Assembly: GCA_949751835.1 (NCBI GenBank)
Contig: CATKHK010000098.1
Coordinates: 88,870-152,869, forward strand
DNA: 64,000 nt
Reading direction: 5' to 3'
Origin: Blepharisma japonicum
Lineage: Eukaryota; Ciliophora; Heterotrichea; Heterotrichida; Blepharismidae
Notes under the pieces: model-generated
What the model saw: only the letters and a program-made list of their open reading frames with translations
Told to the model about the DNA's origin: nothing
The model's database searches: none
Shown here: one piece after another, positions 4,855 through 41,814 of the stretch
How positions within the stretch are numbered: the first letter of the stretch is position 1
Layout: each line of letters opens with the position of its first letter
Made by a program: the position numbers and the translations under genes

Positions 4855-5387
4855 TATAAATGGCAGCACTTCGACTCCACCATTTAATAAATTAGCACTG
4901 TAATTCCAGATTATATATAACAAAATAGAATAGCTTGCCATTTGGAAGTAAGTTATCCAAGTGTAATGGCCTAATGGTTCTGGAGCCTACAAGCTTTCAG
5001 TGTTATAAATAATTAACTATTTTTTGTTGTTATCATTGCTAAGATTATAAAGAGATAACTTTTGATGTTAAATATTAAGATAATCTTGATAAGCTTGCAT
5101 TAATGGTGGATCATAAAGATTAGAATTGGCCTGATATTTTGAGCTAGTTACTCTGAAATCCATCTTAATTCTAGATTGTTTGATATATACAAAATCTCTT
5201 CTGAATTATTTCTTAAGCCGTCTATAAGATTTAAAGCGCATTTTGTTTCTTTTAGTTTATTGCTGAGATCATTAGTAATGGCATTTATTTGAGAATTAAG
5301 CCAGCTTTTCTTTTCTATTTTTAGTTTTAGTTTTATTGGATCTATACTATTTTCAAGCCTTTTTAACTCTTCTGTAAAAGTCATCAT
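4855..5387 (-). pseudogene. decayed copy of the B-box/kelch gene (middle part)
   Basis: Minus-strand remains resemble the neighbouring gene at 5859-7559. The VEALPSG-like block (tggcagcacttcgactcc at 4860) matches 6394, the HQANSNLYDPPLMQAYQD-like block (5085-5150) matches 6640-6700, and the coiled-coil block (5148-5387, starting EELKRLENSID) matches the linker near 6770-6960. Zinc finger and propeller C-terminus are absent. It abuts the start of duplication B at about 5386. Confidence 0.65.
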
Positions 5388-7588: not shown

Positions 7589-7867
7589 GAATTACAAATT
7601 ATAACTTAATTTTAAACAAAACTCCTATGATGTATGATATTTCTGCAATGGAACCTAAAATCTAAAAATGTATTTAAAAATAAAATTTATATTTAAAATT
7701 GAAAAAAACCGATAACTCAAGCATGATCTTTAAGGAAAGAAATTTTTGACAAACAGTATACATCACATTGATTTTTGAAGCAAGTCGGCAATGTAATTAT
7801 ATTTTTGCAATCGTTTTTGAAACAATTTAATGCAGAAAACTTGAAAGTTTAAGGCTCAAAGTCTATA

Positions 7868-10258: not shown

Positions 10259-10635
10259 AAAATTAAAATGGCAAGTGAATTGATCTCTTAATTCCTTTCC
10301 CGTATATTAATGGGGCGGAGATATTGATGAAAGAAGTGTGTCGTTGAGCTGTATTCATAATGGAGCACTGCATTTCTAATTTCCTTTTTTTATATTAGCT
10401 GACTAGAAAATTCGATTTCTTGTATTTTCTATTTAAGCAATCTCCGATGCGTGGTATGGTAATAAATTTTTATGGATTCCGAATAGTGAGTGCAAACATT
10501 CTTTAAAGCAATATTTGTGATATCTTGAAACGTGAACTGGCATACAAGCCCTGGAGAAATAGAAAAGAGAAAAAGGATTTTGTAGATCCACAGTGGACTT
10601 TTTTACAAGTTTAAATAAAAATAACGATTTGATTA
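10255..10635. mobile_element. TA-bounded 381-bp insertion (IES-like)
   Basis: Alignment with 29094-29411 shows continuous homology on both sides and nothing corresponding to this block. It is bounded by TA at 10253-10254 and TA at 10634-10635. Keeping one TA joins the family start ATG (10651) in frame to the rest of the kelch gene. No transposase or long terminal inverted repeats are visible. An alternative is recombination that pasted another paralogue's 5' flank: the left end (ccataaaattaaaatgg) resembles the flank at 36531. Confidence 0.6.
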
Positions 10636-10904
10636 TGACCTTTAGTTCCATTTAAAAATTTGTGCAAGGTTTAGGCACAATTTTTTTTCAATATTTCTCA
10701 TAAAATTTTCAGAACTATGAGCTTTGAGCATTGTTTACATTTCTTTATGTAATAAAAATATATCTAACTACATTAATTCCAGGAGATATCCTACCTGCAT
10801 ATGGATCAAAATGTAATAGTAAAACCTTTTATCCATATGACTTTTATCTACATAAAGCCTTGAAGCATGGTTTCTGCAGCATATAAAGAGCTCTTCTATT
10901 TAAT

Positions 10905-11190
10905 CATTAATAATTTGATATTTATAAACCGAAATGGTGGTATTCTGCAATGATTTTAAGAATATCTTATCTTGTCCATTTGAACATAATTAATTTTATA
11001 AATTCTTAATTTTCTCTGATAAGGCAAGCGGTCACTAAATGTGGAGAAATGTTTTTCGTATCAGAGATTTTAACAATACATGTGAAGAAATTGTATGATG
11101 TTTGAATCTTCACTATTGAAATATTTAACATATAATTTTGACGCAATGAAAAATATTGCATGAAGGTAAGGATATAAGGAGAACAAATGA
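10905..11190 (-). pseudogene. unknown gene fragment, broken copy
   Basis: The counterpart of the open frame at 29657-29941 (see there). Here the frame is interrupted by a TAA in the ENSEF-equivalent position and by small indels. Function unknown. Confidence 0.3.
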
Positions 11191-11364
11191 GGATTGAGAT
11201 ATTTCAAAGGATTCATTGATAATTATAATTAAGTAATTAAGATTAGCTGAATGAGCTCTATCCAAATAATAAATCAAATAGAAAACGTATTATAAATTAA
11301 GTAATCTAGAGAAAAGTTTATTTTTAGTCTTTTAAGAAAATAAGCGATCATGAATCTATAAAAA

Positions 11365-12663
11365 ATGTTTAACGGTAGGTGCTTCAAAGATGGCTGTACA
11401 AGCAAGCTGCATGGAATATGCAGATGTGAAGGACTCATCCTATTCTGCAGAGACCATGGTCTTGAGCATGTAGAAAAACCAACACCTAAAGGGCATCAAA
11501 TCTTAAGATGCTACTTTAAACCAGCAGAAGAAATCAAGCAGCCAATTATCGATAAGCTAATAGAACTAAAAAAAGATATCAAAAATTTTAAGATTGAAGC
11601 AATTACTAAGGCAAATGAAATTATCAAGAATTTTACAACTGAATTTGAGAAATATCTCAATCAAATAAATGAAGCAGAAACAAGATGCAACAAAATAATT
11701 GAAATCTTATATAATGGAGAAGAGGTTCTTGATATTGCTACTGAAGATGACATGGAAAATGTTTTAAAATTAAACGTTTCAGATATTAAATATAAGACAA
11801 TCTGGTGAAATATAAGCAAATGCAGCTACAATGCAATAAATGAAGCTATCAAAAATATTTATAAAAGCACTTTTGTGGTTTCTTTTGTACCAACTTTAGA
11901 AAATGAAATTGAATCAAACGAGCTTTCATTTTTTAGAGATAGCACTTCTAATTTTGCAACAATAAACTTAGATACTTTCCAGATTTCCTCTACAGTAACT
12001 CTTCCAACTGAAACAACAATTCATCCATATACTACAAGCTGTATACTCCCTGATAAAACGTATTTTTATTGCTGCAATAATAATTCTGGTTCAGGACTTA
12101 CATTTACGATTGACAAAAATAAAAATTATAAGCAGCTGCAAAATTCAAAAGTGTATCATTATGCTGGCCCTATTTTTTATAATAATTTTATCTATTTAAT
12201 AGGAGGAAATAGCAATCAGGCTCAAAGGTATGATTTTAAACAAAATGTTTGGGAAAGCATCGCTCCATTACCCCAAGGTTTAAATTTTAATTATAGCTAC
12301 AGTGCGCAATATAGAGATACAATTCTTATAGTGGGCTATTATATCCAAAAAGTAATAATTTATAGCATCCCTCAAAATAGCTACCAAGAAGCCCCGAATT
12401 TGATATTAAATGTTAATTGTTTTAAATTGATATTGAAAGGAAACAATAGGATTTATGTACTTGAGAAAGGAGGAAGGAATTTTGAAAGTAGCGAAAACAG
12501 TATTTCAAGTTGGACTCAAGTAGGAACTAATAGCATTACAGCTAATTGTGGTCTTTCTAGTATTGTTTATTATAAAGGTTTCATTTACTTTATTAAACAT
12601 CAATACCAACTCTGGAAGTTCGATCTCACTTCAAAGCAAGTATCTCAGGTTACAACTTTATAA
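11365..12663 (+). CDS. B-box-like zinc finger / kelch protein (432 aa)
   Basis: An ATG at 11365 opens a frame to TAA at 12661-12663, with one in-frame TGA (11806) read as Trp. Residues about 6-45 hold a B-box-like pattern (CFKDGC, CRCEG, FCRDHGLEH, KGHQI). Residues about 60-115 are a Lys/Glu-rich coiled coil. Residues about 170-430 form kelch-like units (FIYLIGGNSNQAQRYDFKQ with VWESIAPLP; IVYYKGFIYFIKHQYQLWKF). The propeller is only distantly related to the main family. A full upstream flank is shared with its near-identical copy at 30117. This copy is intact; the other has a one-base insertion. Likely an adaptor or scaffold (inference). Confidence 0.85.
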
Positions 12664-13534
12664 AATAAAGAATTTATAACTTAAATAAAGCCGAACCATG
12701 CATTAGCAAAATTGCATGATTCTTCGCTCGTCTTTTCTTCGTATGATTATGCTTAGTTATTTTTAATAAAAACCTAATAAAAGAAAAGAGCAATATTGCA
12801 ATTGGTATTTCAATCTGCCTTACTCTTATATTTTAAAAATCCTTAATTATGATGTTTCTTATAAAATAAGAGTAGAGCATAAAAAAGGAAATAGAAAGTA
12901 AATGAGAACCTCTAAAAGAAGAGCCATTAAAAGGAAAGCTAGAAGAGGCCATGAATTAATAACCAAAATGATAACGCCATTAAAGCAAGTGTCACAAGAT
13001 TTTCTAAAGGAAGATTAGCATTTCTCCTCTATTAATTTTGTCTTTCTTGATTCAAATTCAATATAAAATAAATGCTGATTATCCTCTCCTCACTAGATGG
13101 CTAAATCTCAGCTTGAGAATTTACTTTATTTCTCAATAAATGAAAAACTTGCATTTTCCTAACTTAATATCTTGAAAACAAATTTACTCCCTCATTTATG
13201 AGATTGCAATTCTTATACCAGCTTGCAATACAATTAAAATATATAAAAAGTTTAATTCATCAGTAGAATCATCAAAATATATGAATGTTCTTTTAATTTC
13301 CTAAATTCTTTATATATAAATAGAAATATTACAAATTTTTCTGCTATTAATAAAGGGAAAATGCGATTCTCATAGATTAAAATCTCTCTAGTTTATATAA
13401 GCACTTTTTGCATAGTTATTGAGAGACACTAGTATATCATTAAATTTTTGCATTTAGTTATATTTCTTAAAGAATTAAGTGATATCTTTTTAATAGGAGA
13501 GAAGACGGAAAGAAGTTATTTTATTTGATACTAT
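12664..13534. other. 3' flank within duplication A
   Basis: Non-coding, AT-rich. Most of it aligns with 31417-32259, with one replaced block of about 90-110 bases near 13205-13315. No gene, hairpin terminator or RNA gene is evident. Confidence 0.45.
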
Positions 13535-13648
13535 TTATTCTTCTTGTGATTCATCTAAACAGATTAGAACTTTTTCATTCAAATTAAATTTTTCGTATTT
13601 TTTATCTGCATACTCTTCATCATCAAAAGCGTCCATATGTCCAAATAA
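13535..13648 (-). pseudogene. kelch gene 3' end, truncated at a breakpoint
   Basis: These are the last about 38 codons of a kelch gene (equivalent to 32260-32369: GHMDTFDDEEYADKKYEKF and LNEKVLI), ending at the TAA complement 13535-13537. The rest of the gene is missing because the sequence changes at 13648 to the SecA-family pseudogene. This marks a recombination junction. Confidence 0.7.
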
Positions 13649-13649
13649 A

Positions 13650-16600
13650 AAAAGTGTGGAACTTCTGCAATCAATTATTACTGTATATCAGCAATACTTT
13701 GAAAAGACTAATAATGATGTGATATCATTTATTAATAATCAAGTGACAAATAATATAGCTGAAATTCAAACAAAATTTGATGAATTCAGCCCTGTTAATG
13801 GAGATACCTGATAGAGAGTATTTAATTTCTGCTTCTTATCAAGAAAGTTTAAATTCACTGATAAATAAGATCAGCTTTTTCAGAAAAGAAGCAAAAGAAT
13901 TTGTTAAATCATTTATAAATTCTCCTGATTCTGTAGATTTTAATCACTTGCGTAATTGTTTCTTTTGGCTTGAGTCGGGAAAATGAGTCGAAAAATTAAG
14001 AGAAGGAATTTACAGTAATGAAATCTCAGGAATAGAAAAAGAAATAAAAATTATATTGACAAACTTTTATTTAAAATTAAAAGAAATTAATTTAGGAATT
14101 CAAAAATTATATCCAATTCTTCAATTAAAAGAATTTATTCCTTCATTGGAAAATTATGAGAAAGATATTTGAATATTTTTAAGAAAAAGAGTTGAGGAAA
14201 CATTGAAGCTCATAAAAAGAGAGTTTAACCCAGAATTGCAAGATATTGAAAAGGAAAACAATGATTTAAAAAGATTAATGAGTCAAGAGCATAAATTAGA
14301 TTATGCACTCTATCATATAAAAGGCACAAATTTAAATAAAAATGAGCTAGAGGATAAATATAATGAGTATAATGAACATTTTGGTCAGCTTCACAGAATA
14401 TACTGAAGAATTACAAGTAATGAAGGGGTGAATAGTGCAATCTCTCAAATATTAAGCCAAAATGAAATAGAGTCCAAAAATCATGTCATAACCTCTTTAA
14501 ACCCAGATATTAATTTGATTAAAAACTTTATCCCTGAGCTTTTAGCTCATATAGCAATGCTATGGGTACTTTTGAATATTAAAAAATATAATCAAGATGT
14601 AAATGACGAAGATCAAGAAATTAATATGGTCACTCCACATACAATGCAGGTTCTATCAATATTTCGTATGATTGGCATTGGCTATGAAGAGAACACCAAA
14701 TCTAAGAATAGCTTAGTCCAAATCCTAACAGGTGAAGGAAAATCAATCACATTAGCATTTTTGTGCTCCATGCTCGCTCTGCTAGGATTTAGTGTGAACT
14801 GCGCCTGCTATAGTGAGCACCTAAGCAATAGAGATTTTCAAGATTTTCAACCATTATACACAGCCTTAAATGTTTATCATATGTAAATATGGGACTTTTA
14901 ACAAGCTCTGCGAAGATGAAATAAATTCTAAAGGCTATATCAGAACAATCGTTTTAGATTTCATAAAGTTTGGAAGATGTCCAGGGGTATATGATGAAAC
15001 TGAGGAAAGACCTAAAATTCTTTTGATAGATGAGGTAGATGTATTTTTCACAAAAACTTTCTATGGGAATATATATAGGCCTCTTGCTAAGCTAAAGCAT
15101 GATACAATAAAGAAATTAACGGATGATGTATGGAAAATAAGAAAAGCGCCTCAACTGATGGATATTTGAAATGCGCCTGAATATAACTCTGCAGTCTACA
15201 GTTTCCAGGATTCGAATTTCTCATTGAAGAGGCTGTTAAAGATATGATAAATCATGTCAGACAGTTTGAGTCACATGATTATATAGTGCAGCGCGATAAA
15301 ATTTGCTACAAAGAGAATGATGGGGTTTCATTTAATATATCTACGGATATAATACATTATTTGCATACTATTATGAGAATGAAAAGGGAAATATCTCTCA
15401 AAAAGCTTAGAAGAAAATATTTTTATTGGAATTAAATGCGGAATGTTTTCATTTGCAGAAATTCCCCACAAATTCAATTACATTATGGGAGTGACTGGAA
15501 CTTTAGAGACTTTGGATTATTATGAAAAAAATATTATAGAGAATGAATACAATATAAAACTAAACACTTATATGCCATCAGTATTTGGGGAAAGCAACCG
15601 TATTTTTAGAAAAAAATTGGATATTTATGTAGAAAATAAACATAATTATAATATGAAGATAATGTCCGAAATAAATAGTCAAATAGCAGGCAAAAAAGCA
15701 GACTGCAAAAGAGCAGCATTGGTATTTTTCGAAGAAGAAACAAAATTAATGGATTTTTATAATAATTCAAATCTAAAGAGCACTGATTATAAGATTCAGC
15801 TCATGACAGAAAGCTTGAGTGCAGAAGACAGGGTATGATGATTAAAAAAGCAACAGTTCCTAATACGGTATCATTATTAACAAGAGCTTTAGGTAGAGGA
15901 ATTGATTTTAAATGCGAAAATCATGAAATTGAGACAAATGGAGGAGTGCATGCAATCCAAGTATTTTTTTTCATAAATATATCAGAAAAACACAAATTAT
16001 GGGAAGATCTGCAAGGCGAGGCCAAGAAGGATCATTCAACATGGTCCTTTTAGATAGTGAACTAGAAAAATTTTGGCTTCAAAACATGATATTGAAAATA
16101 TGAAAGGTAATGGTATCATTTATAATGGTTTGGGTGAGGAGAGAGGTGAATATAATCAAATAAAGAATAGCAATGAATCTGGACATGTGAAACAATCTAA
16201 AGCTCTATGATAGCTCAGTTGAATTTCAGTGTTTTCTTCAGAATAATAATATATCAAGAGCTAAAGGGTTTCTGCATGAACTCAATAAAGGATCCAGAAT
16301 TAATATCTATGGTGCAAAAACAATTGTTTTAATGGATGCAACAGGGTCTATGTCACACTTGTTACAAAACGCCAAAAATACTGTAAAAGTCATGTTTTCA
16401 AGAGTTTGTGCAGTTTTATCAAAGAAGGGGGTAAGTTTTGGGTGTTTTCAGCTTCAATACTGCTTTTATAGAAACTATAACTCAAACGAAGATAAAATAC
16501 TCCAAATTTCACCATGAACAAACAAGCCTGATATTCTGAAAAGGTTTATGGAGAATGTGCAATCTGAAGGTGGCAATGGAAATGAAGCAATAGAAGTTTG

Positions 16601-17005
16601 ATTATGGCATATAAATAAGATTTCACAAAATGATAAAATTTCACAAGTAATTTTAATTGGCGACAAACCTCCAAATATTATCGAGGATATTTCTAAGAAG
16701 CGAGGTACACGATCAGATTATTGAAATAGCTCGAAATTTAGCAGTGTCGAATATTATGAGATAGAGTTAAAAAAAATGATAAGTAAACAAATCCAATAAA
16801 TGCCTTTTATGTCGCTAACTATGCTCGAGAGAAATTTGAAGAGATTGCAAGATTAACAAAAGGCCAAAGTGGGTTTTTAGATATTAATTCAAGCTCAGGG
16901 GCTGATAGACTTACTGATTTGGTATCAAAAGAGGTTTTAAGAAAGTCTGCTGGAGAAGATGCTGTAAATCTTTATCGAAAAATGTATCCTCGCTCATATA
17001 CTTAA
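13650..17005 (+). pseudogene. SecA-like/vWA giant gene, decayed and internally deleted copy
   Basis: This copy corresponds to 22250-22920 joined directly to 25780-28518 of the large gene; about 2.85 kb of the helical middle is absent. The junction lies near 14280, where KREFNPELQDIEKENND runs into KLDYALYHIKGTNLNKNEL. C2 and GTPase parts are missing at the 5' end. The SecA core survives in pieces: TGEGKSITLAF (14730), LLIDEVDVFF (15024), SLLTRALGRGIDFKC (15868), then a vWA piece MDATGSMSHLL (16332). Frameshifts occur near 13790, 14880, 15170, 15370, 15435, 15835 and 16040. It ends with the same SYT-TAA as the large gene. It is not functional. Confidence 0.85.
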
Positions 17006-19354: not shown

Positions 19355-22300
19355 ATGATTAGTGAGCATAACCCTTTGCTTACATTTAAAGTCACTGAAC
19401 TTGAATTTAAGCCAAACTGAGATATAGATGCAGCTCTAGAACTAAGTTATACGTTAACGGACTCTCAAACCTCCCATGTAATCTCCCTGTCTTCTGTTTT
19501 TGAGCCTTCACATGTTTCTAGCCTTCCTCCTGTTCCCTTGCAGTCAGGACTCTATAACTCCTTAGTTATTAGCATTTATATGAAATTCTTTGATGATCAA
19601 AAGCTACTTGGATCAGCATTAATTGATCTCAACCAAAATCTCCCACTAAGGACATGACTAAAAATCCCAAGCAATGGCGATGAAGTTTTAAGCATAGAAA
19701 TAGAAATCATCAAAGAAGAAAAAATTGAAATCCTCCAAATAAATTCAGATGTAAGTGAAATTATAAATCAAAGTAAAAAATGTGAAAATCTACAAAATGT
19801 AAGAGAAGAACACAAAAATGAAGAGGAAATGAAAGAGTTATTAAGGGTCTATGAAATTGAAGATATAAATAGTGTTGGAGAGAAAATTGAAGAGACTAAA
19901 GGTTCCATTGCTCATTACCATAGTAGGAAAAAAATTGATAAAGAGGAAAAAGAAAAGACCAAGTTAATTGGCCTTCAAAGACTGTTGCAATTGAATGAAG
20001 AAATAAAGATATCAAAAGAGAATGAAGAAATAGAATTAATTAAAAAGAACAACAAGACTCATAATTCTCATGCAAGTAATTTGGATGAAGAAAATCCAGA
20101 AGAAGAGCTAAAGCAAGGACTGAGTAAATACCAAATTGATAATCCAAAAAAATTAGAAAAATTAATAAATGAATCAAAAAAAGTTATTTTATACTATCAA
20201 AAGATGAAAAATCTAGACGAAGTAGAAAAATTAGAAAAACTTGTTGCAGATTATGTAAAGCTAAAAGACATATTCAATAAAATTAATTTGAAATCTATGA
20301 TAATGTTAGATTTGAATGATATTAAAAACGAAAAACAACTAGACTTCATCGAAGGGCTTCTAAGCGATATTTCTTCTTACCCTGATTGCACTGAAAGATT
20401 TCTTACCAGCATTTTGTGCTATGCATATTATAAAAACTATAATTTTGAAACTGCACATGACATTCATGTAAGGATTAGGCAAATAGATCATTTAAAGGAG
20501 TTCAATAATTTCATTGAGTTTTTAAATCAAAATAAGCAAGAAAATTTGCCAAGAAAACTTATCAAAAGCTTTAAAGAAAGCTTTGAAAATCAAAATTGGA
20601 AAAATTTGATCAAAGACATAGAAAAAATTTTCAGAGATCATCTTCGTCCAATAAATATAAAAGAGATTTCTCGCTTAATTAGCAAATCAGTTCATTTCTC
20701 TGAAAATTTAGAAAATAAAGACATTATTTTGCTAATTGGAGTAACAGGCTCAGGAAAGTCAACAACAACTCATTTTTTATGTGAATCTAAATTAGAGAGA
20801 ATTTCCGAAAATGGTGTGATGCATATCAAAGCTATTGCTGTGAAAACTCCTCTCCTAAAAAATACTATAATCTCTTCCCAGACTCAATCAGAAACTAGAT
20901 ATATCACTATGGTACCAATAAATATAAAAGAAACTGGAAAAACGATTTATCTGTGTGATGCCCCTGGACTAATGGATACAAAGGGCGCAGAGATTGACAT
21001 AGCAAATACGATCAGCATTGTTGAGTATGCTAAGAGATGTAGAAGTGTAAGACCATTGATTTTATTAAGCTGCAAAACTGAGGGTGACAGATTTGAAGGA
21101 GTCAAGAAACTTGCTCATTCATTGGCTAGGCTTACTCCAAATTTCAATAAATACAGCAATTCGTTTACATATGCATTTACAAAATATAAAAAGAAAGACG
21201 CTGCAAATATGCATGCATTGATAAAAGACGCTTTAGAATTAACTGATAATCAAGATGGAGCATTTTTTCATATTTTAAATGATATGAAAAATAAAACTAA
21301 AAATGGAACAATAACTATAAATCCTTTAGAAGATAATCCTCAAGATCTTATTAGAATAATAATGGAAAGAGAGCCAATATTAGACCCAATGAATGCGTTT
21401 GAACATTTTATAACTGAAGATTCTCGATTTTATATTAATAATCAAATGTTGGTTTATTCAAAAGATATTGAAAAAGCATTGAATTCGATGAGTTATGAAA
21501 TGATTAAATATAAACTGGACGATCTTAAGTATATAATAACTCAATTTAATCAGTTTGAGCCATATTATAATAACTGTGTTGAATCTGTGATTACAAATAC
21601 TAATGATGCTTATAACAAAGCAGTTGCCCAATTTAACAGCTTTCTTGAAAGGCATGGATCTTTGGATGAAAATAGCATAAAATTGTATAAAGAAGTTTAT
21701 AATGCTCTGAAAATATCAGAAGAAATCAGGGAAAATCATTTAAAAGGTGAAACAGTCAAATCAGCAGCAATGATAACCAATATTGTCTCACAGCTGAGCC
21801 TTGCTCAGCTCAGCTTAAAATGTGAAACTACTGATTCTTACATTTTGAAAGCCCAATTAAATAATGCAAAAGTTTTAAGTCAAAATTTTGGAGAAGTAGC
21901 TCCTCACTATCAAAATATTATTACAGATTATAAAAATCTCATTAAAAATTTATTCAATTCTGCAGAGTCGCATTTAAATGATAACAATTTTGAGATTTTT
22001 GCAAGCACTTTATTGCAAGCAAAGAAATATTTAGGAATCGTGGTGGATCATTTTAATTTAGAAGCTTTAGAAGAAAAGCATAGCAATCTTATAAGTATTT
22101 TCAAATCGAACTTAAAGAGTTGAAAAGATAAATCAATTTCCTTACTAAATAAAGGATGCATTGAAAAATATGACATAGAGATTCTCCAAAGAAGCATATC
22201 TCTTATAAAATCAGCTATTGATGCTCACTCTTTAAATTCTTTAATACCACAAGAAGATATAAAAAATATTTTGCAAGAAACTCTTAAGTTCTATCAACAA

Positions 22301-25300
22301 TACTTTGAAAAGGCCAATAATAATGTCATAGAACTTATCAATAATGAGGCCACGCATAATATATCTGAAATTGAAACAAAATTTGATGAATTTAGCTTAT
22401 TGATGAAAATTCCTGATATTGAATATTTAATTGTTGCTACTTATCAAGAAACATTAAACTCTCTAATAAATAAGATAAGCCATTTCAAAAAAGAAGCAAG
22501 AGAAATTGTCAAAGCATTTCTCATTTCTCCAGACTCTACCAATATTAGCTTTTTGCGTAATTGCTTTTCTTGGCTTGAGTCAGGAAAATGAATTGAAAAA
22601 TTTAGAGAAGGGACTTATAGCAATGAGCTCTCAGGAATAGAAAAAGAAATAAAAAATTATATGGATAAATTGTTAGTTGAATTTGATGAAATTGATTTAG
22701 GATACAATTTTTCTGCCAATATATCCAAAGCTTACAAAATTATAAAAAAATTAGATCCAATTCAGCAATTAGAAGAATTTATTCCTTCTCTGAGGAGCTA
22801 TGACAATAATATATATGTAAAATTCAAAGAAAGAATTGAAAAAGTATTAAAAATAATGAAAAGAGAATTTAATCCAGAATTGGAAGATATTGCAGAGGAA
22901 TTAAATGATTTAGAGAGATTAAAAGGAATTAGGAATGAGTATTTGAAATATAAAGAAGAAAAGAAAACTAAAAATTGCGAAGAATTGCTTGAAATAAATC
23001 GCGTTGATAGCATCAGAGAAATAGACTCAAAAATAAGCAAAAGGGAGCATTTTATTGAAATTTTCAATAAAAAATTGATTAAGAACGTGTTTGATGTTGA
23101 TAGAATAGAAGATTTTTATAATTATATTGAGGAATGCAAAAAAATACCAGAATTATCTAAAATTATTGAGCCTTTCTATACAAATATTATACCTATGCTG
23201 TCTCAATTCTATAACAATCATATGAATTCTTCGAATGAATGCCTTAATGCTATTTCAATACATATTTCAAATAACATTATTTGAGACATAAATATTATAA
23301 AGCAGAATTCTTATCAATTTTCTTTAAGCTTCAAAGAAATAATACAATTAAATTCAAAATCTCAATCATTTTTCAATTTTTTAGAACTGCTGCCTCACTA
23401 TGACCATTGCAACAGCCAGCTTGATAGTTTATGCCAAAAATTTGATGGAAAGTTTAATTCTTGTGTTGAAAAAAATGAGATCAAACTTATCTCTCTGCTA
23501 TTAGCTGTTGCTAATGATTTTTCTAAATTTAATAATACATTTTTAGAAATTTTAAATAGCTATGAAAAAATTCAAACCTCCAAACTAGATCAAATTTCCC
23601 AAAACATAATTCAATTTATTCAGAGCCATGATTTTGATAAATTAAAACAATTGATAGAAAAGCTTGATGAAATAGTATTAAATCAGTTTATGGACACTAT
23701 TAAAAATAAATTTTATTCAGAAATTGATAATTTATTGGATCATCTTAAAGAGCGTGTCTTAAGTATAAGCAATTCTAAGCTTGAAAGTGCTCAATTAAAC
23801 AGTGTAATCACAAGTTTCCAAGATATAATCTCTGCTAAAAAATTAGACCTTTATGACTTATTATTAGATAACAAAACAAAACAAATATTTATAAATCAAG
23901 AGGAAGAAGTTAAAAAAATATTTCATAGTAAAATTGAATGAATTTTATATACAATAAAAGAAGCTGCTGATTTTGATAAATATTATGAGGCTGAGCTGAA
24001 AATGAAAATTATTCAAGAAATGAAAAGCAGCTTACTTTTGCTCTTTGAGCCAAAATTTGCAAAAACTCATATTAATAAAATTGAAAAGAAGCTTGGTGGA
24101 ATGCCGAAAAGAGTTATTGACACTATAAGATTATGCAATATTAAAGATTTGAAGCAATGCTCTCTACGAATAATTTTACAGGAATTTGAAGATGCTTCGA
24201 AAATATTCCCAAGATATAAAGGCGCTTCTGATAAAGTCAAAAGTATAATTTGTAAAAAATTTGAATATATAAAGGACACTATTAATAAAAAATATCCAGC
24301 TGAAAAAAAAGAGATTATTAAAGACATTTCATCAATATTAGATTGTTTGCCAGATGACATTAAAAAGTTGGGTTGTTGTTTAATAAATGAAATTAAGAAA
24401 AATTATAAAGCTGAAAAACAATTTACAAGGGAGAAGATCGATCTACTAGCAAAAGATCAAAATATAAAAGAACTTTGCACAATTTATCATAAATTAACAA
24501 AGAAGAAATCCGAATCAGACGCTCTTTATGCATCTAAGAAAATAAAAGAAGTGTTATTGCAAATAAAAGATGAAATAAGCTCTTGCCTGAGCAAAGGTGA
24601 ACTAGAGAAAGCCTTTAAAAATGCTGGCGTTTTGGAGTTCGAAGGTAAACTAAATGGCATAATTTCTAGCAGTGACATAACACTATTAGAAATTCAGAAA
24701 AGTCTAAAGAAATTTGTTGAAAATGCTTTGAGTGTTCTCCTAAATGTTGAACATAAAGATAAGAGTGATGAGCTAATAGAAGCTTTTAAAGTTCATATCG
24801 TTTTTATGGATTTTAAAGTTAATTTTGAAAAAGAAATGGCAATTTCAAATGTTTTTGAAGTTAATAACATCATTGAAAGCATGGTGGTAGGCATATTAAA
24901 TATTTACCAAAACCTCTATAAAAGTTATTTAGAGTTTAGGCCTCCAAAAAATGCTTTTAAATGCAATAATATATTAAATAAAATAAGAGAGTGGGATGAG
25001 TTTTTCAGAATTTATAAAGAATATATGTCAAACTATCAATATTACCATTGCAATATTGACTATTTAAAAATTCAAAAACTTCCACGTTACTCTGAGCTTG
25101 TTGAGGAATTAAGTAATAACTTGCATCAATTTAGTGGTTATTTTCTTAACATGAGAATCGATCTTAATCAAATAAGACACCAAAAACTCATTGAAGATTG
25201 TGCTAATGAAATTCAAGAAAGACTAAACCAAATGCAAAATTATGAGGATATAAAAAATCATCTAAATCCTCAAACTCTTTTTGAAAACATTAAAGAAGGA

Positions 25301-28300
25301 GTACTTGATTCGATATCCAAAGAATTGAATAGAATTGTGAATGATGCATCAATTTTGATAAATAAAGTAGAAATTACAGAAAAGGAATTTGATGATCTCA
25401 AAAATTATTATAGTTGCCTTGCTGTGTTTGAGAAAAATCTAAAAATAAATGGCATCGATTGGAGAAAGACTCTTAGTGAAATTGAAGACATGATGTATTG
25501 CAAAACTCTGAAACTAAAAGAAAAGGCTGAGATGGAAACTCAAGTCGATGAAATTGCTAAGCCTTTAATTAAAATGAAAAAGATTTCAAATGATTTCCCT
25601 CTGCTTAAAAAAGAGCTTGATAAAATTATGGATGATTTTTTCACAACATTTGGCAAGAAAAATAAAGAAATGGCTGTAGCAATGTTTGGAGAATTAAATA
25701 AGCATTCAAGCGAATTAGGACGCTATATAATCGCAGAGCATAGATTCTTTGAATGGCTAGTGAAAAAACTGTGAATTGATAAGACTCAAATGCACGGTAT
25801 AGACTATGCAATTAACCATATAGAAGGCACTAATTTAAATAAGGAAGAGCTACATAATAAATATTTAGAATGAGATGGAAAATTTAAAGAGTTACGCCAA
25901 ATATATTCAAGAATAGCAAGTAACGAAGGAATAGGCAATTCAATAGCTCAAATAATAAGCAAAATAGAGATAAAATCTAAAGATCATGCAATAACTCCTT
26001 CAAACAAAGATTTCAGCGTATTTAGAGGTTTTATTCCTAAGCTTTTAGCTTATATAGCAATGCTATGGGCTCTTCTGAATATCAAAATATACAAGCAAGA
26101 TATAAATGCTCGAGATAGAGAGATTACAATGATTATTCCACATCCAATACAAATCCTATCAATATATCGCATGATTGGCATTGGCTATGAAGAGAATGCG
26201 AGACCTAAAAATAATTGGTTCAAATATTAACAGGGGAAGGAAAATCAATCACGTTAGCATTTCTATGCTCAATACTTGCTCTATTAGGATTTTCAGTTGA
26301 CTGTGCCTGCTATAGTGAGCATCTAACTAAAAGAGATTTTCAAGATTTTCAACCTTTATACACAGCATTAAACGTCTCCTCTTATATAAAATATGGGACT
26401 TTCAACAAACTTTGTGAAGATGAAATCAATTCCAAAGGTGACATCAGAACAATAGTTTTAGATCTCATAAATCATGGAAGATACCAAATGGCGAATAGAG
26501 AAGTTGCTGAAAGACCAAAAATTCTTCTAATAGATGAAGTAGATGTATTTTTCACCAAATCTTTCTATGGGAATATATATCGACCTCTTGCAAAATTAAA
26601 GCATCCCAAAATTAAGGCATTAACTGATTACATATGGAATATAAGAAATTCACCTGAACTTGAGGAAATAGAAAATACACGCGAATATATGAGTTGCTGT
26701 AAGCAATTTCCTGGATTTGAATTCATCATTGAAGAAGCCGTTAAAGATATGGTAAATCAGGTACGCCAGTTTAAATCACATGACTATATAGTCCTAAATG
26801 ATAAAATTGGTTACAAAGAAAATGATGGAGTTTCATTCAACATTAATTATGGATATAATACATTATTTGCATATTATCATGAGAATGAAAAGTTAAAAAT
26901 ATCTCGAGAAAGCTTATGTGAAAATATTTTTATTGGAGTTAAATGCGGCATGTTTTCATATGCAGAAATTCCTCACAAATTTGAATGCATCATGGGAGTC
27001 ACTGGAACTCTAAAAACTTTAGGGGATTATGAAAAAAATATTATAGAAAATGAATATAATATTACACAAAGTACCTATATGCCATCAGTATATGGTGACA
27101 ATCTTCGTGTCTTCAGAAAAAATGGAGACGTCAACGTAGAAAATAAGGATAATTATCATATGAAGATAATGTCCGAAATAAATAGTCAAATAGTAGGCAA
27201 AAAAGCAGACTGCAAAAGAGCTGTATTGGTATTTTTCGAAGATGAAGCAAAATTAATGGATTTTTATAATGAGTCACTCATAAAATATTCTAATTATGAG
27301 ATTCAGCTGATGGATGAAACCTTGAGTGATGAAAACAGAAGCATAATGATTAAAAAGGCTACAATTCCAAATACCGTATCATTATTAACGAGAGCTTATG
27401 GTAGAGGGATTGACTTTAAATGCCTAAATAATGAAATTGAGGCAAATGGAGGAGTTCATGCAATCCAAGTATTTTTTTCAGAAAATATACCAGAGGAAGC
27501 TCAAATTATGGGAAGATCTGCAAGGCAAGGTCAAGCAGGATCATTCAGTATGGTTCTTTTAGATTCTGAGCTAGAAAAGTTTATAATCTCTGAACAGGAT
27601 ATTGAAAATATGAGACATAATGGGACAATTTATGATGGCTTAAATGAAAAAAGAAATGAATATAATAAAATTAAGAATGCCAATGAATCTAATCATGTGA
27701 AACAATATAAAGCAGAGCATAATAGTTCAGTTGAGTTTCAGAGATTCCTTCAGAATGGGGATTTGAAAAAAGCTAAAAGATTTCTGCATGAACTCAATGA
27801 AGGATCCAGAATTAATATCGAAAGCACAAAAACAATTATTTTAATGGATGCAACTGGGTCTATGTCTCATTTATTGCAAAATGCCAAAAATACTGTGAAG
27901 GAAATGTTTAAAAGAGTTTGTGCAGTTTTATCAAGGAAAGGGATAAATTCTGAATCCTTCCAGCTTAAGTATTGCGTTTATAGAAACTATAGCTCAAATG
28001 TAGATAAAATACTCCAAGTTTCCCCATGAACAAATAAACCTTATATTCTAGAAAGATTTTTGGAAAACATAAGACCTGAAGGTGGTCAAGGAAAAGAAGC
28101 AATAGAAGTTGGATTATGGCATATAAATAAGATCTCACAAAATGATAAAATTTCACAAGTAATTTTAATTGGTGACAAGCCTCCAAATACTATTGAGGAT
28201 ATTGCCTTAAAACGAGGTAGACGATCAGATTATTGAAATAACTCGAAATTTAGCAGTGTCGAATATTATGAGATAGAGTTAAAAAAAATGATAAGTAAGC

Positions 28301-28518
28301 AAATCCCAATAAATGCCTTTTATGTCGCTAACTATGCTCGAGAGAAATTTGAAGAGATTGCAAGATTAACAAAAGGCCGAAGTGGGTTTTTAAATATTAA
28401 TTCAAGCTCAGGGGCTGATAGACTTACTGATTTGGTATCAAAAGAGGTTTTAAGAAAGTCTGCTGGAGAAGATGCTGTAAATCTTTATAAAGAAATGTAT
28501 CCTCGCTCATATACTTAA
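19355..28518 (+). CDS. giant C2 / GTPase / SecA-like ATPase / vWA protein (about 3,054 aa, one frameshift)
   Basis: The ATG at 19355 (in-frame TAA just before) opens a frame to TAA 28516-28518, with TGA=Trp at several sites (19421, 22121, 22589, 23282, 23939, 25772, 28027 among others). Residues about 85-140 look like a C2 domain (DDQKLLGSALIDLNQ, then a conserved Trp). About 150-300 are coiled coil. A P-loop GTPase follows: GVTGSGKST at 462-470 and CDAPG at 534-538, in the AIG1/septin-like style. Residues about 700-2200 are helical and Lys/Glu-rich. A SecA-type core comes next: LTGEGKS about 2292, IDEVD about 2393, GRSARQGQAGS about 2720. A vWA domain ends it, with MIDAS DATGSMS about 2832. 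A one-base loss near 26205 breaks the frame relative to the decayed copy. Such nucleotide-driven plus adhesion-type domains suggest a large mechanoenzyme, but the role is unknown. Confidence 0.8.
26195..26216 (+). other. single-base frameshift in the giant gene
   Basis: Upstream frame: GYEENARPKNNWFKY then TAA. Downstream frame: VQILTGEGKS. The decayed copy (14690-14735) has one more base and reads through. No classic slippery heptamer is visible at the site. It is a real mutation, an assembly error or unusual recoding. Confidence 0.7.
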
Positions 28519-29093: not shown

Positions 29094-29411
29094 CTACAAG
29101 ATAGCTAAAAGTGTTATTTTATGGTAGGATTTGATGTATTCTTGATAAGCTTCATTGAGTTCTGAGTTAAGATAGGAACTTTCCTGAATTAATAAGCAAG
29201 TTTTTCTGAAATCTCTTTCCCTTTCTGGATTATTGGCACTGCTCATCAGTGCTGATGTTTTTCTTCTTAGTCCTTCAGAATTTAATAATTGATATAAGCA
29301 ACTTTGATTGACCTCTCTTTGAAATTCGTTCGTTTCATGATTTAGGGATTCTTCAGTTTGACTTAACTGAGAATTAAACAAATTGATCTGATTATGACCT
29401 TTAGGTTTCAT
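29094..29411 (-). pseudogene. kelch gene N-terminus only
   Basis: ATG at 29411 (MKPKGHNQINLF) through AYQEYIKSYHKI, then sequence diverges and stops (TAG 29094). The whole propeller is gone. The break falls right after TACCATAAAAT, the same site where the gene at 43668-44977 carries its 52-bp insertion. It is the partner of 9950-10651 in duplication A and lacks that copy's 381-bp insertion. Confidence 0.8.
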
Positions 29412-29656
29412 TTAAAAATTTGTGCAAGGCTTACGCACAATTTTTTTCAATATTTCTCATAAAATTTTCAGAACTATGAGCTGTGATCATTGATTATATT
29501 TCTTTACGTAATAAAAATATCTAACTACATTAATTCCAGGAGATATCCTACCTGCATATGGATCAAAATGTAATAGTAAAACCTTTTATCCATATGACTT
29601 TTATCTGCATAAAGCCTGTAAGCATGATTTCTGCAGCATATAAAGAGCTCTTCTAT

Positions 29657-29941
29657 TTAATCGTTAATAATTTGATATTTATAAACCACAATGGTGGTAT
29701 TCTGCAATGATTTTAAGAATTTCTTATCTTGCCCATTTGAATATATTAATTTTATAAATTCTGAATTTTCTCTGATAAGGCAAGCAGTTACTAAATGTGG
29801 AGAAATGTTTTTCGTATCAGAGATTTTAGCATCCATGTGAAGAAATTGTATGATGTTTGAATCTTCACTATTGAAATATTTAACATATAATTTTGACGCA
29901 ATGAAAAATATTGAATGAAGGTAAGGATATAAGGAGAGCAA
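29657..29941 (-). pseudogene. unknown open fragment (about 94 codons)
   Basis: A minus-strand frame with non-random composition (DSNIIQFLHMDAKISDTKN, then ISPHLVTACLIRENSEFIKL) ends at TAA 29657-29659. There is no ATG at its head. The counterpart at 10905-11190 is broken, so it is not under strong constraint in both copies. It may be the C-terminal piece of an unrelated gene. I do not recognise the family. Confidence 0.35.
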
Positions 29942-30116
29942 ATGAGGATTGAGATATTTCTAAGGATTCATTGATAATTATAATTAAGCTTAGCTAAATG
30001 AGCTCTATCCCAAATAATAAATCTAATAGAATAGAAAACTTATAATAAATTAAGTAATCTAGAGAAAGTTTATTTTTAGTCTTTTAAGCAAATAAGAGAT
30101 CATGAATCTATAAAAA

Positions 30117-31416
30117 ATGTTTAACGGGAGGTGCTTCAAAGATGGCTGTACAAGCAAGCTGCATGGAATATGCAGATGTGAAGGACTCATCCTATTCTGC
30201 AGAGACCATAGTCTTGAGCATTTTGAAAAACCAACACCTAAAGGGCATCAAATCATAAGATGCTACTTTAAACCAGCAGAAGAAATCAAGCAGCCAATTA
30301 TCGATAAGCTAATAGAACTAAAAAAAGATATCAAAAATTTTAAGATTGAAGCAATTACTAAGGCAAATGAAATTATTAAGAATTTTAATACTGAATTTAT
30401 GAAATATCTCAATCAAATAAATGAAGTAAAAACAAGATGCAATAAAATAATTGAAATCTTATATAATGGAGAAGAGGTTCTTGATATTGCTACTGAAGGT
30501 GACATAGAAAATGTTTTAAAATTAAACGTTTCAGATATTAAATATAAGACAATCTGGTGAAATATAAGCAAATGCAGCTACAATGCAATAAATGAAGCTA
30601 TCAAAAATATTTATAAAAGTCCTTTTGTGGTTTCTTTTGTACCAACTTTTGAAAATGAAATTGAATCAAACGAGCTTTCATTTTTTAGAGATAACACTTC
30701 TAATTTTGCAACGATAAACTTAGATACTTTCCAGATTTCCTCTACAGTAACTCTTCCAACTGAAACAACAATTAGTCCATATACTACAAGCTGTATACTC
30801 CCTGATAAAACGTATTTTTATTGCTGCAATACTAATTCTAGTTCAGGACTTACATTTACGATTGACAAAAATAAAAATTATAAGCAGCTGCAAAATTCAA
30901 AAGTGTATTATTATGCTGTCCCTATTTTTTATAATAATTTTATCTATTTAATAGGAGGAAATAGCAATCAGGCTCAAAGATATGATTTTAAACAAAATTT
31001 TTGGGAAAGCATAGCTCCATTACCCCATGGTTTAAATTTTAATTACAGCTGCAGTGTGCAATATAGAGATTCAATTCTTATAGCGGGCTATCATATCCAA
31101 AAAGTAATAATTTATAGCATCCCTCAAAATAGCTACCAAGAAGCCCCGAATTTTGATATTAAATGTTAATTATCATAAATTGATATTGAAAGGGAACAAT
31201 AGGATTTATGTATTTGAGAATGGAGGAAGGAATTTTGAAAGTGGCGAAAACAGTATTTCAAGTTGGACTCAAGTAGGAACTAATAGCATTGCAAATGATT
31301 TCAGACATTCTAGTATTGTTCATTATAAAGGTTTCATTTACTTTATTCAACATCAATACCAACTCTGGAAGTTCGATCTCACTTCAAAGCAAGCATCTCA
31401 GGTTACAACTTTATAA
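30117..31416 (+). pseudogene. B-box-like / kelch gene, copy 2 with one-base frameshift
   Basis: Near-identical to 11365-12663: same zinc pattern, coiled coil, TGA tryptophan at 30558 and kelch units. A run of four T at about 31150 (three in copy 1: gaatttgat versus gaattttgat) shifts the frame and gives an early TAA at 31167-31169. The remaining 87 codons continue in the next frame to 31416. All other differences are substitutions, so it is either a very young pseudogene or a homopolymer sequencing error. Confidence 0.8.
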
Positions 31417-32259
31417 AATAAAGAATTTATAACTTCAATAAAGCCGAACCATGCATTAGCAAAATTGAATGATTCTTCGCTCGTCTTTTCTTCGTGTGAT
31501 TATGCTTAGTTATTTTTAATAGAAACCTAATAAAAGAAAAGAGCAATATTGCAATTGGTATTTCAATCTGCCTTACTCTTATATTTTAAAATCCTTAATT
31601 ATGATGTTTCTTATAAAACAAGAGAAGAGCATAAAAAAGGAAATAGAAAGTAAATGAGAACCGCCAAAAGAAGGCCCATTAAAAGGAAAGCTAGAAGAGT
31701 CCATGAATTAATAACCAAAATGATAATGCCCATCAAAACAAGTGTCACAAGATTTTCCAAAGGAAGATTAACACTTCTTTTCCATTAATTTTGTCTTTCT
31801 TGATTCAAATTCAATATAAAATAAACGCTATTATAATTTAATTATCCCCTTTTCACTAGATGGCTAAATCTCGGCTTGAGAATTTACTTCTCTCTTAATC
31901 AATGAAAATTTTGCATCTTCCTAACTTAATATCTTGAAAACAAATTTACCCCTCATTTATGAGATTGCAATGCTTAGCAGATGATCAATTGGTCGAACCT
32001 TCGCCTTTAAGCACACTGAATTTATCAATAATACTATATAAATAAATAGAAATACTACAAATTTTTCTGCTATTAATAAATGGAAATTGCGATTCTCATA
32101 GATTAAAATCTCTCTAGTTTATATAAGCAATTTTTGCATAGTTATTGAGAGACACTAGTATACCATTAAATTTTTGCATTTAGTTATATTTCTTAAAGAA
32201 TTAAGTGATATCTTTTTAATAGGAGAGAAGACGGAAGAAGTTATTTTATTTGATACTAT
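31417..32259. other. 3' flank within duplication A, copy 2
   Basis: Non-coding counterpart of 12664-13534. No gene or RNA is seen. Confidence 0.45.
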
Positions 32260-33723
32260 TTATTTTTCTTGTGGTTCATCTAAACAGATTAGAACTTTTT
32301 CATTCAAATTAAATTTTTCATATTTTTTATCTGCATACTCTTCATCATCAAAAGTATCCATATGTCCAATATAGATTGATCCTTTATTATAAGCCCAATA
32401 TAAACTATCAGGAAAATAAAAAGGGTATCAACTTGATATATACTTCCAGGAATATTCATTTTTAATATCGCTTTCCCAGATATCATTTTCCCAGATAGGG
32501 CCACCTCTTAATAAGCATTGAATCAAATAAAGTCTTTGTTCTGCGCTTATGAGAACCTTGATAGCCTTTTTTTTAAAATCATAAGGAATCGTTGAGAAAG
32601 AGTCAATATCAATTGAATAAAAAAATAGATTTTTATTTTTTCATCCAGAAATCAAAATCTTCCTGTTAAATATTACACTATAACATCATTGATCAGACTT
32701 TGGCATTGGAGTTAATTTAATTCATCGATTCTCATCCAAACTAAACTTGTAGTAGCTTGTTTCCGGGTCTTTAGTGCAATCATTGTCATCTATACATCCA
32801 ATATAGATTCCTCTTTTATTATATAGCCAATACACACTATCAGGGACAATATACATTTCTGAGCTTGAGATCCATTTTCATGTATACTCATCCCTACTTT
32901 CATAGATTGATCCTTCAAATTCAACCAAATATAGCCTCTCTTCTGCATTTATCACAATCTTTCGCTTATGCTTCTCAAATATATAAGGAATTTTCGAAAA
33001 AGAGTCAATATCAACTGAATACAATAAAAGATTTTTATTTTTTCAGCCAGAAATCAAAATATTCCCATTAAATATTGCACTATGGCACCAGAGATCTGCT
33101 TTTGGCATTGATGCTAATTTAAATCATCGATTTTTATCCAAATCAAATCTATGAGATAGAGCTAATACATTGGCATTGCTATCATCCCCTCCAAAACAAT
33201 AAATATTTCTATTCAAATAAATAACTGATGAGCCTTCATAAAGTGTACCAGATGGAAGTCTATGAACTTTATAATCGTTATCAATTATCAAAGCTATCCC
33301 AGATACAGGATAAGATGTACCAAGACAAAATAACCCGCCATCTGAAAGTTGAGTAATGTATGTACGAGTGCTTAAAGCTTTTGGAGTCTTCAACTCTATT
33401 ATTATTTCTTTTTCACTCTCTGTGTCATAAATAACTAAATTACTCATTTTTTCAACTTCATTAATTTTATCTTCACTGTCTTCATCACTCTCATCATTTT
33501 CATAATCTCGATAAAAAAGGTAAAGAGATGTGATTTTATGGTATGATTTGACATATTCTTGATAAGCTTCATTAAATTCTGGGTTATTAATAGAATTTTC
33601 GCTATAAAATAAACAAGTTTGCCTGAAAGCTTGCTCTTTGATAGAATCATTGGGACTGCTCAAGAGTGCAGATTTTTTATTTCTTAGAATTATTGACTTA
33701 TCAGCACAAATTAATTTGCACAA
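32260..33723 (-). CDS. two-module kelch chimera (about 487 aa), N-terminus truncated
   Basis: A continuous minus-strand frame (TGA=Trp) runs from about 33723 to TAA 32260-32262. It holds the helical block AYQEYVKSYHKITSLYLF, an acidic linker, a complete propeller half ending YNKRGIYIGCIDDND and YYKF, and then, without a stop, a second propeller tail: SLDENRWIKLTPMPKSDQW through YNKGSIYIGHMDTFDD. The join lies at SLDEN (about 32735), where the terminal YYKFxLDE unit and the internal FDLDENRW unit resemble each other, so unequal recombination at that motif explains it. The usual MEPK... start is missing; the frame opens with TTG, so translation is doubtful. Confidence 0.65.
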
Positions 33724-39229: not shown

Positions 39230-39276
39230 TTTCTGTCCAAGCCTTATTGAAAAACCTCTAAATACTGAGCTAATAA
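39193..39276 (+). pseudogene. kelch gene start fragment
   Basis: ATGGAACCTAATCCTCAAAA is a typical family start. It is followed by a one-base slip and traces of LISVQ/SLIEKPLNTEL, then the sequence switches at about 39277 to duplication B. Confidence 0.65.
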
Positions 39277-41505: not shown

Positions 41506-41814
41506 AGCTATTTAATTCTAAATAATTAATTAATATGAATTTTTAATTTTCTGCATTTTTAAGGGTTATATGTGAATACAGTTATACACGTCCAAACTTA
41601 ACTCCCAAGTGGGCTTTTTCTTTTAAAAAAATCCAAAAGCGATCATTTTATTTGTAAAGACTCTTAATGCAATCATACTCTGCCCTACTGAAAGATATAT
41701 AGCTAAAAATATTATTTTAAATACTGAAAATTAATGAGTATAAGAGCTCTGAATAAATTTAACGGTCATTATTTTGTGTATTCAACTATCACTCTACTCA
41801 ATAAAATTTTAAAT
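41506..41814. other. unassigned intergenic stretch
   Basis: AT-rich sequence with no supported gene or repeat, between duplication B and a kelch relic. Confidence 0.4.

What the first reader, a model, noticed from the sequence alone, without database searches (positions are those of the whole stretch)
19355..28518. Giant fusion of C2, P-loop GTPase, SecA-type ATPase core and vWA domain
A single gene of about 3,054 codons joins a membrane-type C2 domain, a GTPase (GVTGSGKST, DAPG), some 1,500 residues of helical sequence, a SecA-like two-lobe helicase core (TGEGKS, IDEVD, GRSARQGQAGS) and a vWA domain with MIDAS DATGSMS. SecA is a bacterial or plastid translocation motor. Here it has no visible preprotein-binding or C-terminal SecB-binding parts and sits in a nuclear gene of a plastid-less lineage. 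At least three copies of different age lie in tandem. It could be a remodelling motor or an intracellular defence-type machine; the function is inference.
Basis: partly seen in the sequence, partly recalled or inferred. Interest (0 to 1): 0.85.

Follow-up and report, generated by a model that had tools for sequence, protein, structure and literature searches.

The report
Giant ciliate protein with SecA-like motor
A ciliate gene cluster holds a very large protein that joins a membrane-type module, a GTPase switch, a long helical arm, a bacterial-type protein-pulling motor and a docking module; its motor and switch resemble pieces of large proteins from bacteria that live inside other cells, which hints at exchange or conflict between host and symbiont, but the copy seen here has a one-base break and its function is untested.

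Summary
Under a UGA=W code (Blepharisma-like), window 19355-28518 encodes a C2 fold, a P-loop GTPase, about 1,590 residues of amphipathic helix, a SecA-type ATPase core with its motifs intact, and a likely vWA domain. It is not one open frame: frames of 2,291 and 767 codons meet at about 26212. The upstream copy reads through there and no short GT-AG intron fits, so this copy lacks one base (lesion or assembly error). A stretch of preprotein-domain size lies between motifs II and III, so "no preprotein-binding part" is not established. The "three tandem copies" are this one, a truncated copy with frameshifts but no in-frame stop (dN/dS about 0.26), and a 0.2-kb remnant, in a Kelch gene array. 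The nearest motor relatives found are mostly very long Rickettsiales proteins, some ending in nuclease domains; the GTPase weakly matches symbiont plasmid proteins. A 2016 phage WO paper already reported SecA domains closest to invertebrate proteins. I read it as a membrane-recruited, GTP-switched, SecA-type polypeptide motor, perhaps shaped by host-symbiont exchange. The anatomy is largely shown; the function is inferred.

The parts
19355..26230 (+). first frame of the main copy (2,291 codons, UGA=W): C2, charged linker, GTPase, helical arm, stretch before the SecA core
19367..19720 (+). C2-fold beta-sandwich, residues about 5-122
   Evidence: AlphaFold single-sequence pLDDT 64; all 15 Foldseek hits with E <= 1e-3 are C2; no Pfam or PDB sequence hit
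20702..21274 (+). P-loop GTPase, residues about 450-640 (G1 GVTGSGKST 20738-20764, G3 DAPG 20957-20968)
   Evidence: Pfam MMR_HSR1 5.7e-5; tblastn to symbiont plasmid GTPases 4e-5 to 2e-3
21275..26044 (+). long amphipathic helical arm, residues about 641-2230, no known domain
   Evidence: two stretches (963-1189) have dN/dS 0.33 and 0.51 against the upstream copy
26205..26218 (+). one-base frame break relative to the upstream copy, just before the motor's Walker A
26215..28518 (+). second frame of the main copy (767 codons): SecA-like core and vWA
26215..27600 (+). SecA-type ATPase core (motif I 26230-26247, II 26530-26544, III 26995-27009, V 27397-27414, VI 27511-27543)
26545..26994 (+). stretch between motifs II and III, where canonical SecA carries its preprotein-binding domain; size fits, no sequence match
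27730..28515 (+). likely vWA domain with MIDAS DATGSMS (27847-27867)
   Evidence: Pfam VWA_2 3.6e-4, below cut-off
13635..17002 (+). truncated sister copy: parts matching 963-1189, then 2144-2286, then SecA core and vWA; ten frame-breaking one- or two-base deletions in 14297-17005 by MAFFT, no in-frame stop in the aligned codons
18270..18507 (+). remnant of a third copy (residues 364-443 of the second frame)

Best explanation
A eukaryotic, cytosolic, membrane-recruited polypeptide motor. Shown: a C2 fold, a P-loop GTPase, about 1,590 residues of amphipathic helix, a SecA-type ATPase core with motor motifs I, II, III, V and VI and a preprotein-domain-sized insert, a likely vWA in place of most of SecA's C-terminal parts, and that the alignable parts of two copies diverged mostly under purifying selection. 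Inferred: the C2 puts the protein on a membrane (for example a food or symbiont vacuole), the GTPase acts as a loading or assembly switch as in GIMAP and septin proteins, the vWA MIDAS docks a partner or substrate, and the SecA core uses ATP to pull or unfold bound polypeptide at the end of a long helical arm. The copy in this window is either intact in the cell (if the missing base is an assembly error) or freshly broken, in an array where copies arise and decay.
For: Motor identity; NCBIfam SecA2 profile 7.9e-13 though far under its full-length cut-off. A profile of the core plus eight bacterial relatives finds SecA at 1.3e-65 in the PDB set, which is carried mainly by the relatives. Motif spacing close to SecA (I-II 101 against 105; II-III 156 against 170-182). 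C2. GTPase; BLASTP to the plasmid GTPases 3e-10 to 1e-8, in a database of five sequences. vWA. Selection: dN/dS 0.257 over 892 codons, 0.192 in the SecA core, no in-frame stop in the sister copy, where random substitution at the observed density gives about 22.
Against: No expression, binding or localisation data. The frame break falls directly before the motor and the second frame has no ATG before its Walker A, so as assembled the motor would not be made. The insert does not match SecA's preprotein-binding domain by sequence. The SecA model is poor and superposes poorly. The vWA, and in the whole frame the GTPase, stay below Pfam cut-offs. PDB matches of the GTPase profile to GIMAP4 (3.3e-5) and Septin-9 (4e-4) cover only the P-loop stretch, and Midasin scores higher (3.2e-7), so they do not settle the GTPase's kind.
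Confidence: 0.4

Rival explanations
1. A conflict protein shared with intracellular bacteria: the SecA-like core and the GTPase were exchanged between protist hosts and Rickettsiales-like symbionts, and the ciliate protein now works against symbionts or prey bacteria (or is a captured symbiont weapon).
For: 27 of 262 genomes of the order of G001 (Rickettsiales) match the SecA-like profile at E <= 1e-60, 24 of them in frames of 1,026-4,441 codons; four of the 27 (G001, G004, G005, G006) supplied rows of the profile and G200 probably holds the Megaera genes that supplied two more. Three of seven relatives scanned end in WHH or colicin-type nuclease domains. GTPase relatives in 4 of 72,556 plasmid records, E 4e-5 to 2e-3: three of Ca. 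Megaera/Megaira, one of Neochlamydia (that Neochlamydia lives in amoebae is recalled). Ca. Megaera polyxenophila, from a culture with the ciliate Euplotes, carries both kinds of module on different plasmids. PMC3482391 (passages) lists GIMAP-type GTPases and SecA-like domains among Amoebophilus effectors.
Against: No prokaryotic protein with GTPase, SecA core and vWA together was found in what was searched; the helical arm and the vWA match no plasmid. The main copy sits on a very long branch of unsure place, not nested in one bacterial group. Direction of transfer unknown.
Confidence: 0.25
2. A decaying gene: this copy is already a pseudogene, one more casualty of a birth-and-death array, and says nothing about a working protein here.
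For: One-base break; the sister copy has ten one- or two-base deletions and a third copy is a remnant; the window is full of duplicated and truncated Kelch genes.
Against: 3,058 codons otherwise open; low dN/dS and no in-frame stop in the aligned codons, so inactivation would be recent. An assembly error is not excluded.
Confidence: 0.25
3. The SecA-like core is a nucleic-acid helicase or a non-motor scaffold rather than a polypeptide motor.
For: Helicase_C and ordinary DEAD-box structures also match, more weakly.
Against: SecA outranks helicases in sequence and fold searches; spacing is close to SecA's, including the interval that holds its inserted domain.
Confidence: 0.07
4. Two separate genes that happen to be adjacent.
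For: Two frames as assembled.
Against: The sister copy continues from one part to the other in a single frame; the second frame has no ATG before its Walker A.
Confidence: 0.03

Closest known systems
SecA / SecA2 preprotein translocase ATPase
   Same: two-lobe motor, motor motifs, similar motif spacing, insert at the place of the preprotein-binding domain
   Different: 19-21% identity to 7 canonical SecA and 23% to one SecA2 over the core; most of the C-terminal parts replaced by a vWA; large N-terminal additions; ciliate gene
Very long SecA-like proteins of Rickettsiales symbionts (Ca. Megaera, Rickettsia endosymbionts, Ca. Cyrtobacter, Ca. Arcanobacter)
   Same: SecA-like core inside a long protein; SecA's TERHESRRIDNQ stretch replaced and, in most, GRxARQG or GRTSRQG instead of GRSGRQG; 21-27% identity to the 25 rows compared (columns came from a profile that holds the main copy and such proteins, which favours them)
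   Different: no GTPase or vWA at E <= 0.01 in the seven scanned; three of the seven have C-terminal nuclease domains
SecA-domain proteins of Wolbachia phage WO, reported to be closer to invertebrate than to bacterial proteins (PMC5062602, passages)
   Same: SecA-like domain shared between symbiont elements and eukaryotes
   Different: architecture and sequence not compared here; hosts are animals
GTPases on Ca. Megaera/Megaira and Neochlamydia plasmids; GIMAP/AIG1 and septin GTPases
   Same: P-loop and DxPG motifs; 26-29% identity over about 130-160 residues to the plasmid proteins
   Different: AIG1 itself only E 0.051; G4 reads TKYKKK; part of a 3,000-residue protein
Copines (tandem C2 plus vWA; abstract start in a search listing)
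   Same: C2 and vWA in one eukaryotic protein
   Different: two C2 domains; GTPase and SecA core not part of the described architecture

Membership tests
SecA translocase | DEAD motor with SecA motifs in SecA spacing | tested here: met
SecA translocase | preprotein-binding (cross-linking) domain between motifs II and III | tested here: inconclusive
   right position, 156 against 170-182 residues; no Pfam match to that domain at E <= 1
SecA translocase | full set of helical scaffold, two-helix finger, wing and C-terminal tail after the motor | tested here: not met
   about 100 residues between motif VI and MIDAS, no Pfam match there; a SecA2 profile does run on to residue 510, so the start of the scaffold may remain
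SecA translocase | works with SecYEG | not testable with these tools
   no partner data
Long Rickettsiales SecA-like proteins | core of the kind that lacks TERHESRRIDNQ, inside a very long protein | tested here: met
   grouping with canonical SecA rejected only marginally, p-AU 0.046
Long Rickettsiales SecA-like proteins | C-terminal nuclease domain (seen in 3 of 7 scanned, so not a strict criterion) | tested here: not met
   vWA instead
C2 domain | eight-stranded C2 beta-sandwich | tested here: met
   predicted fold only
C2 domain | calcium or lipid binding | not tested
   none
GIMAP/AIG1 GTPase | AIG1 family profile above cut-off | tested here: not met
   E 0.051, 13.3 against 27 bits
P-loop GTPase (Pfam MMR_HSR1) | family profile above cut-off | tested here: met
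   23.6 against 21.9 bits for the excised domain; 18.3 in the full frame
vWA domain | family profile above cut-off with MIDAS | tested here: inconclusive
   MIDAS motif present; 21.6 against 27 bits; no meaningful PDB hit

The most novel reading that the evidence does not exclude
Ciliates (and perhaps other eukaryotes) run a plastid-independent SecA-type protein translocase or unfoldase that is carried to membranes by a C2 domain and gated by a GIMAP/septin-like GTPase, and that shares its motor and switch with proteins of their own intracellular bacteria: a host-symbiont arms-race machine that pulls proteins through or off symbiont-containing membranes.
Probability: 0.12. Interest if true: 0.9.

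Novelty: new variant of a known kind. Interest (0 to 1): 0.6.

Why it matters
SecA is regarded as a bacterial and plastid motor (established knowledge). A ciliate protein that keeps the SecA motor but swaps its channel-contacting parts for a C2, a GTPase and a vWA would show that the motor can work outside the Sec channel. Modules shared with symbionts of protists and insects make a direct question testable: does the host protein act on symbiont or prey-vacuole membranes, and which way did the genes move?

Tried and rejected
Intron at the frame break: a 16-nt GT..AG stretch (26218-26233) looks like a Blepharisma intron, but removing it destroys Walker A and gives stops; no GT-AG stretch of 13-59 nt starting at 26120-26259 gives an open frame. 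Rejected.

Widespread assembly indels as the cause of all frame breaks: other genes of the window are intact at equal length (two 568-codon frames, 92.6% identical protein), and most gaps of the sister copy are not in homopolymer runs (one is CCC to CC). Not the likely general cause; for the single break in the main copy it stays open. Gap counts depend on the aligner: ten events by MAFFT, 38 gap positions by BLASTN.

Phage and viral origin: no match of the SecA-vWA part (E <= 1e-3) or GTPase part (E <= 0.1) in 50,697 phage records. A bacterial relative's core (L004) matched 23 of those records; the 15 listed are either annotated as ordinary SecA or carry no annotation, and no Wolbachia phage is among the organism names counted. 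In viral contigs the single-sequence scans found no relative, the SecA-like alignment scan 3 loci of 66 stretches, the GTPase alignment scan none of 333. The same L004 core matched 97 of 72,556 plasmid records at E <= 1e-15; of the 25 listed most are annotated secA or SecA2 or have no annotation under the match, with Ca. Megaera, Ca. Bandiella woodruffii and Legionella geestiana entries of other annotation near the top. PADLOC: only weak P-loop or helicase matches, 3.9e-4 and 0.045.

Tree: a first tree (34 rows, 500 columns) put the main copy on a branch of 6.4; three long-branched rows (L006, L029, L054) were then dropped and the tree rebuilt on 406 core columns (31 rows). The main copy's branch is still 5.7, so its place is unsure; the AU test is marginal (p 0.046) and its grouping was not named blind.

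398 Pseudomonadota genomes gave 6 with a match at E <= 1e-60; four of these are frames of 910-959 codons, the size of ordinary SecA, one is the seed genome G001, and one (G605, 1,793 codons with a TAA inside) may be a further long protein. So the threshold separates long from ordinary SecA in the Rickettsiales sample (ordinary ones reach 3e-56) but not in the phylum. Of the 27 genomes counted, three best matches are in shorter frames (467, 633 and 980 codons).

The scan of genome contigs used two short peptide patterns and confirmed 8 of 71 stretches, so it is not exhaustive; L007 and L008 are two contigs of one genome with the same match.

An earlier count gave 17 of 20 frames with Kelch; the calls show 15 of 20 at E <= 0.01, one more with a weak WD40 match.

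Paper searches: nine on the architecture or its relatives and one on Blepharisma showed no description of this architecture in the held open-access library, as far as listings and passages tell; passages of PMC9111745 and PMC8163844 speak only of ordinary SecA. Subscription journals and eukaryotic protein databases were not searchable.

Full report
What is there. The window is AT-rich (about 29% GC) and its long frames are open only when TGA is read as an amino acid. That, and the reported UGA=Trp code and 15-16 nt introns of Blepharisma stoltei (PMC9942806, passages), fit a heterotrich ciliate; the species was not determined and the whole genome is not held. At 19355-28518 two long frames lie head to tail: 2,291 and 767 codons.

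The frame break. The two frames do not join. The upstream sister copy runs through the same place in one frame (KNSLVQILTGEGKS), with silent changes in the codons for VQILTG. The main copy has one base fewer there. Removing any GT-AG stretch of 13-59 nt that starts at 26120-26259 leaves no open frame. So it is a one-base lesion or an assembly error, not a short intron, and two separate genes are unlikely.

Domains. C2: no sequence hit, but a model from the single sequence (mean pLDDT 64) is an eight-stranded sandwich whose 15 Foldseek hits with E <= 1e-3 are all C2 domains or C2-bearing proteins, TM-scores 0.42-0.59 by query length. GTPase: MMR_HSR1 above cut-off for the excised domain. Arm: residues 641-2230 show strong helical periodicity (0.98 against 0.69 +- 0.03 in 30 shuffles) and no repeats by self-BLAST; Pfam finds nothing above cut-off. 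SecA core: Pfam and PDB searches; Foldseek ranks 1-31 all SecA or SecA2, first other protein at rank 32, although the model is weak outside residues 301-460 and superposes poorly. vWA: MIDAS present, profile match below cut-off.

Compared with SecA. Distances between motifs I-II, II-III and III-V are 101, 156 and 133, against 105, 170-182 and 117 in the two canonical SecA proteins measured. The motif VI position of those proteins was misplaced by my pattern, so I draw nothing from it. An insert of about preprotein-domain size is therefore present, though its sequence does not match that domain. About 100 residues lie between motif VI and the MIDAS, so most of SecA's C-terminal parts are gone; a SecA2 profile match runs on to residue 510, so the start of the helical scaffold may remain.

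Copies. The sister copy (13635-17002) lacks most of the N-terminal part and has an internal deletion. Against the main copy, third codon positions differ most (0.266 against 0.167 and 0.114); dN/dS is 0.257 over 892 codons, 0.192 in the SecA core, 0.326 in the vWA, and 0.33-0.51 in the helical and pre-motor pieces. There is no in-frame stop in the 892 aligned codons (codons touching gaps were left out), where substitutions placed at random at the observed density gave 22 on average, and 5 at one fifth of it. So both copies were under selection for most of their history and the ten one- or two-base deletions in the sister copy came late. The vWA end has a lower dS (0.28 against 0.71 in the core), which suggests gene conversion.

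Relatives. In 72,556 plasmid records the SecA-vWA part matches 3: a Lactococcus SecA2, Ca. Megaera polyxenophila at two places (its SecA-like genes of 5,225 and 1,589 codons), and a Rhizobium gene. An alignment scan of GTDB contigs confirmed 8 loci: Rickettsia or Rickettsiaceae or Rickettsiales by title (L004, L005, L009, L011), Ca. Arcanobacter (L007, L008, one genome), Ca. Cyrtobacter (L010) and an unnamed bacterium (L006). In 262 genomes of that order 27 match at E <= 1e-60, 24 of them in frames of 1,026-4,441 codons; four of the 27 supplied rows of the profile. Of seven relatives scanned, three carry C-terminal WHH or colicin-type nuclease domains and none a GTPase or vWA at E <= 0.01. The GTPase alone matches 4 of 72,556 plasmid records at E 4e-5 to 2e-3: three of Ca. 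Megaera or Megaira and one of Neochlamydia. A profile built from these finds 25 of 262 genomes at E <= 1e-5, 12 of them at E <= 1e-16 and the weakest over short stretches only. The helical arm and vWA match no plasmid. In the tree 7 canonical SecA and one SecA2 form one clade (100/100) and the main copy falls among the long proteins, but on a very long branch; grouping it with canonical SecA is rejected only marginally (p-AU 0.046).

Known before. PMC5062602 (passages) reports SecA domains in Wolbachia phage WO that are closer to eukaryotic invertebrate proteins than to bacterial ones. PMC8195603 (passages) describes SecA-like ATPase domains in giant actinobacterial toxins, predicted to aid their secretion, and PMC3482391 (passages) lists SecA-like domains and GIMAP-type GTPases in Amoebophilus effectors. 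So SecA-like cores in giant conflict proteins, and SecA domains akin to eukaryotic ones, are on record; the combination found here was not met in the papers I could search.

Reading. Most likely a membrane-recruited, GTP-switched, SecA-type polypeptide motor. Domain order and motor motifs are shown; membrane recruitment, switching, docking and pulling are inferred from what such domains do elsewhere. Host-symbiont conflict is a reasonable setting, not a result.

Noticed in passing
1-64000: The window is an array of Kelch/beta-propeller genes on both strands: 15 of 20 frames scanned match Kelch at E <= 0.01, with many truncated copies.
   Followed up: partly
10613-13644 and 29372-32369: A 3-kb Kelch-bearing segment is duplicated at 92.4% identity on either side of the SecA-like copies.
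   Followed up: partly
5375-7589 and 39274-41507: Two 94%-identical segments with intact 568-codon frames that match no Pfam family at E <= 0.01, though their second halves resemble the Kelch genes.
   Followed up: no
L031:5875-10936; L032:5278-7458; L033:5203-10437: Symbiont plasmids of Ca. Megaera/Megaira carry a distinct GTPase family (DCPGFxDxxG), annotated with TPR in one gene and joined to Ulp1-like and RickCE-like domains in another.
   Followed up: partly
L012:5045-15709, L013:5048-15718: Two IMG/VR contigs encode 3,555- and 3,557-codon SecA-like frames; L012 was scanned and ends in a WHH nuclease domain.
   Followed up: no
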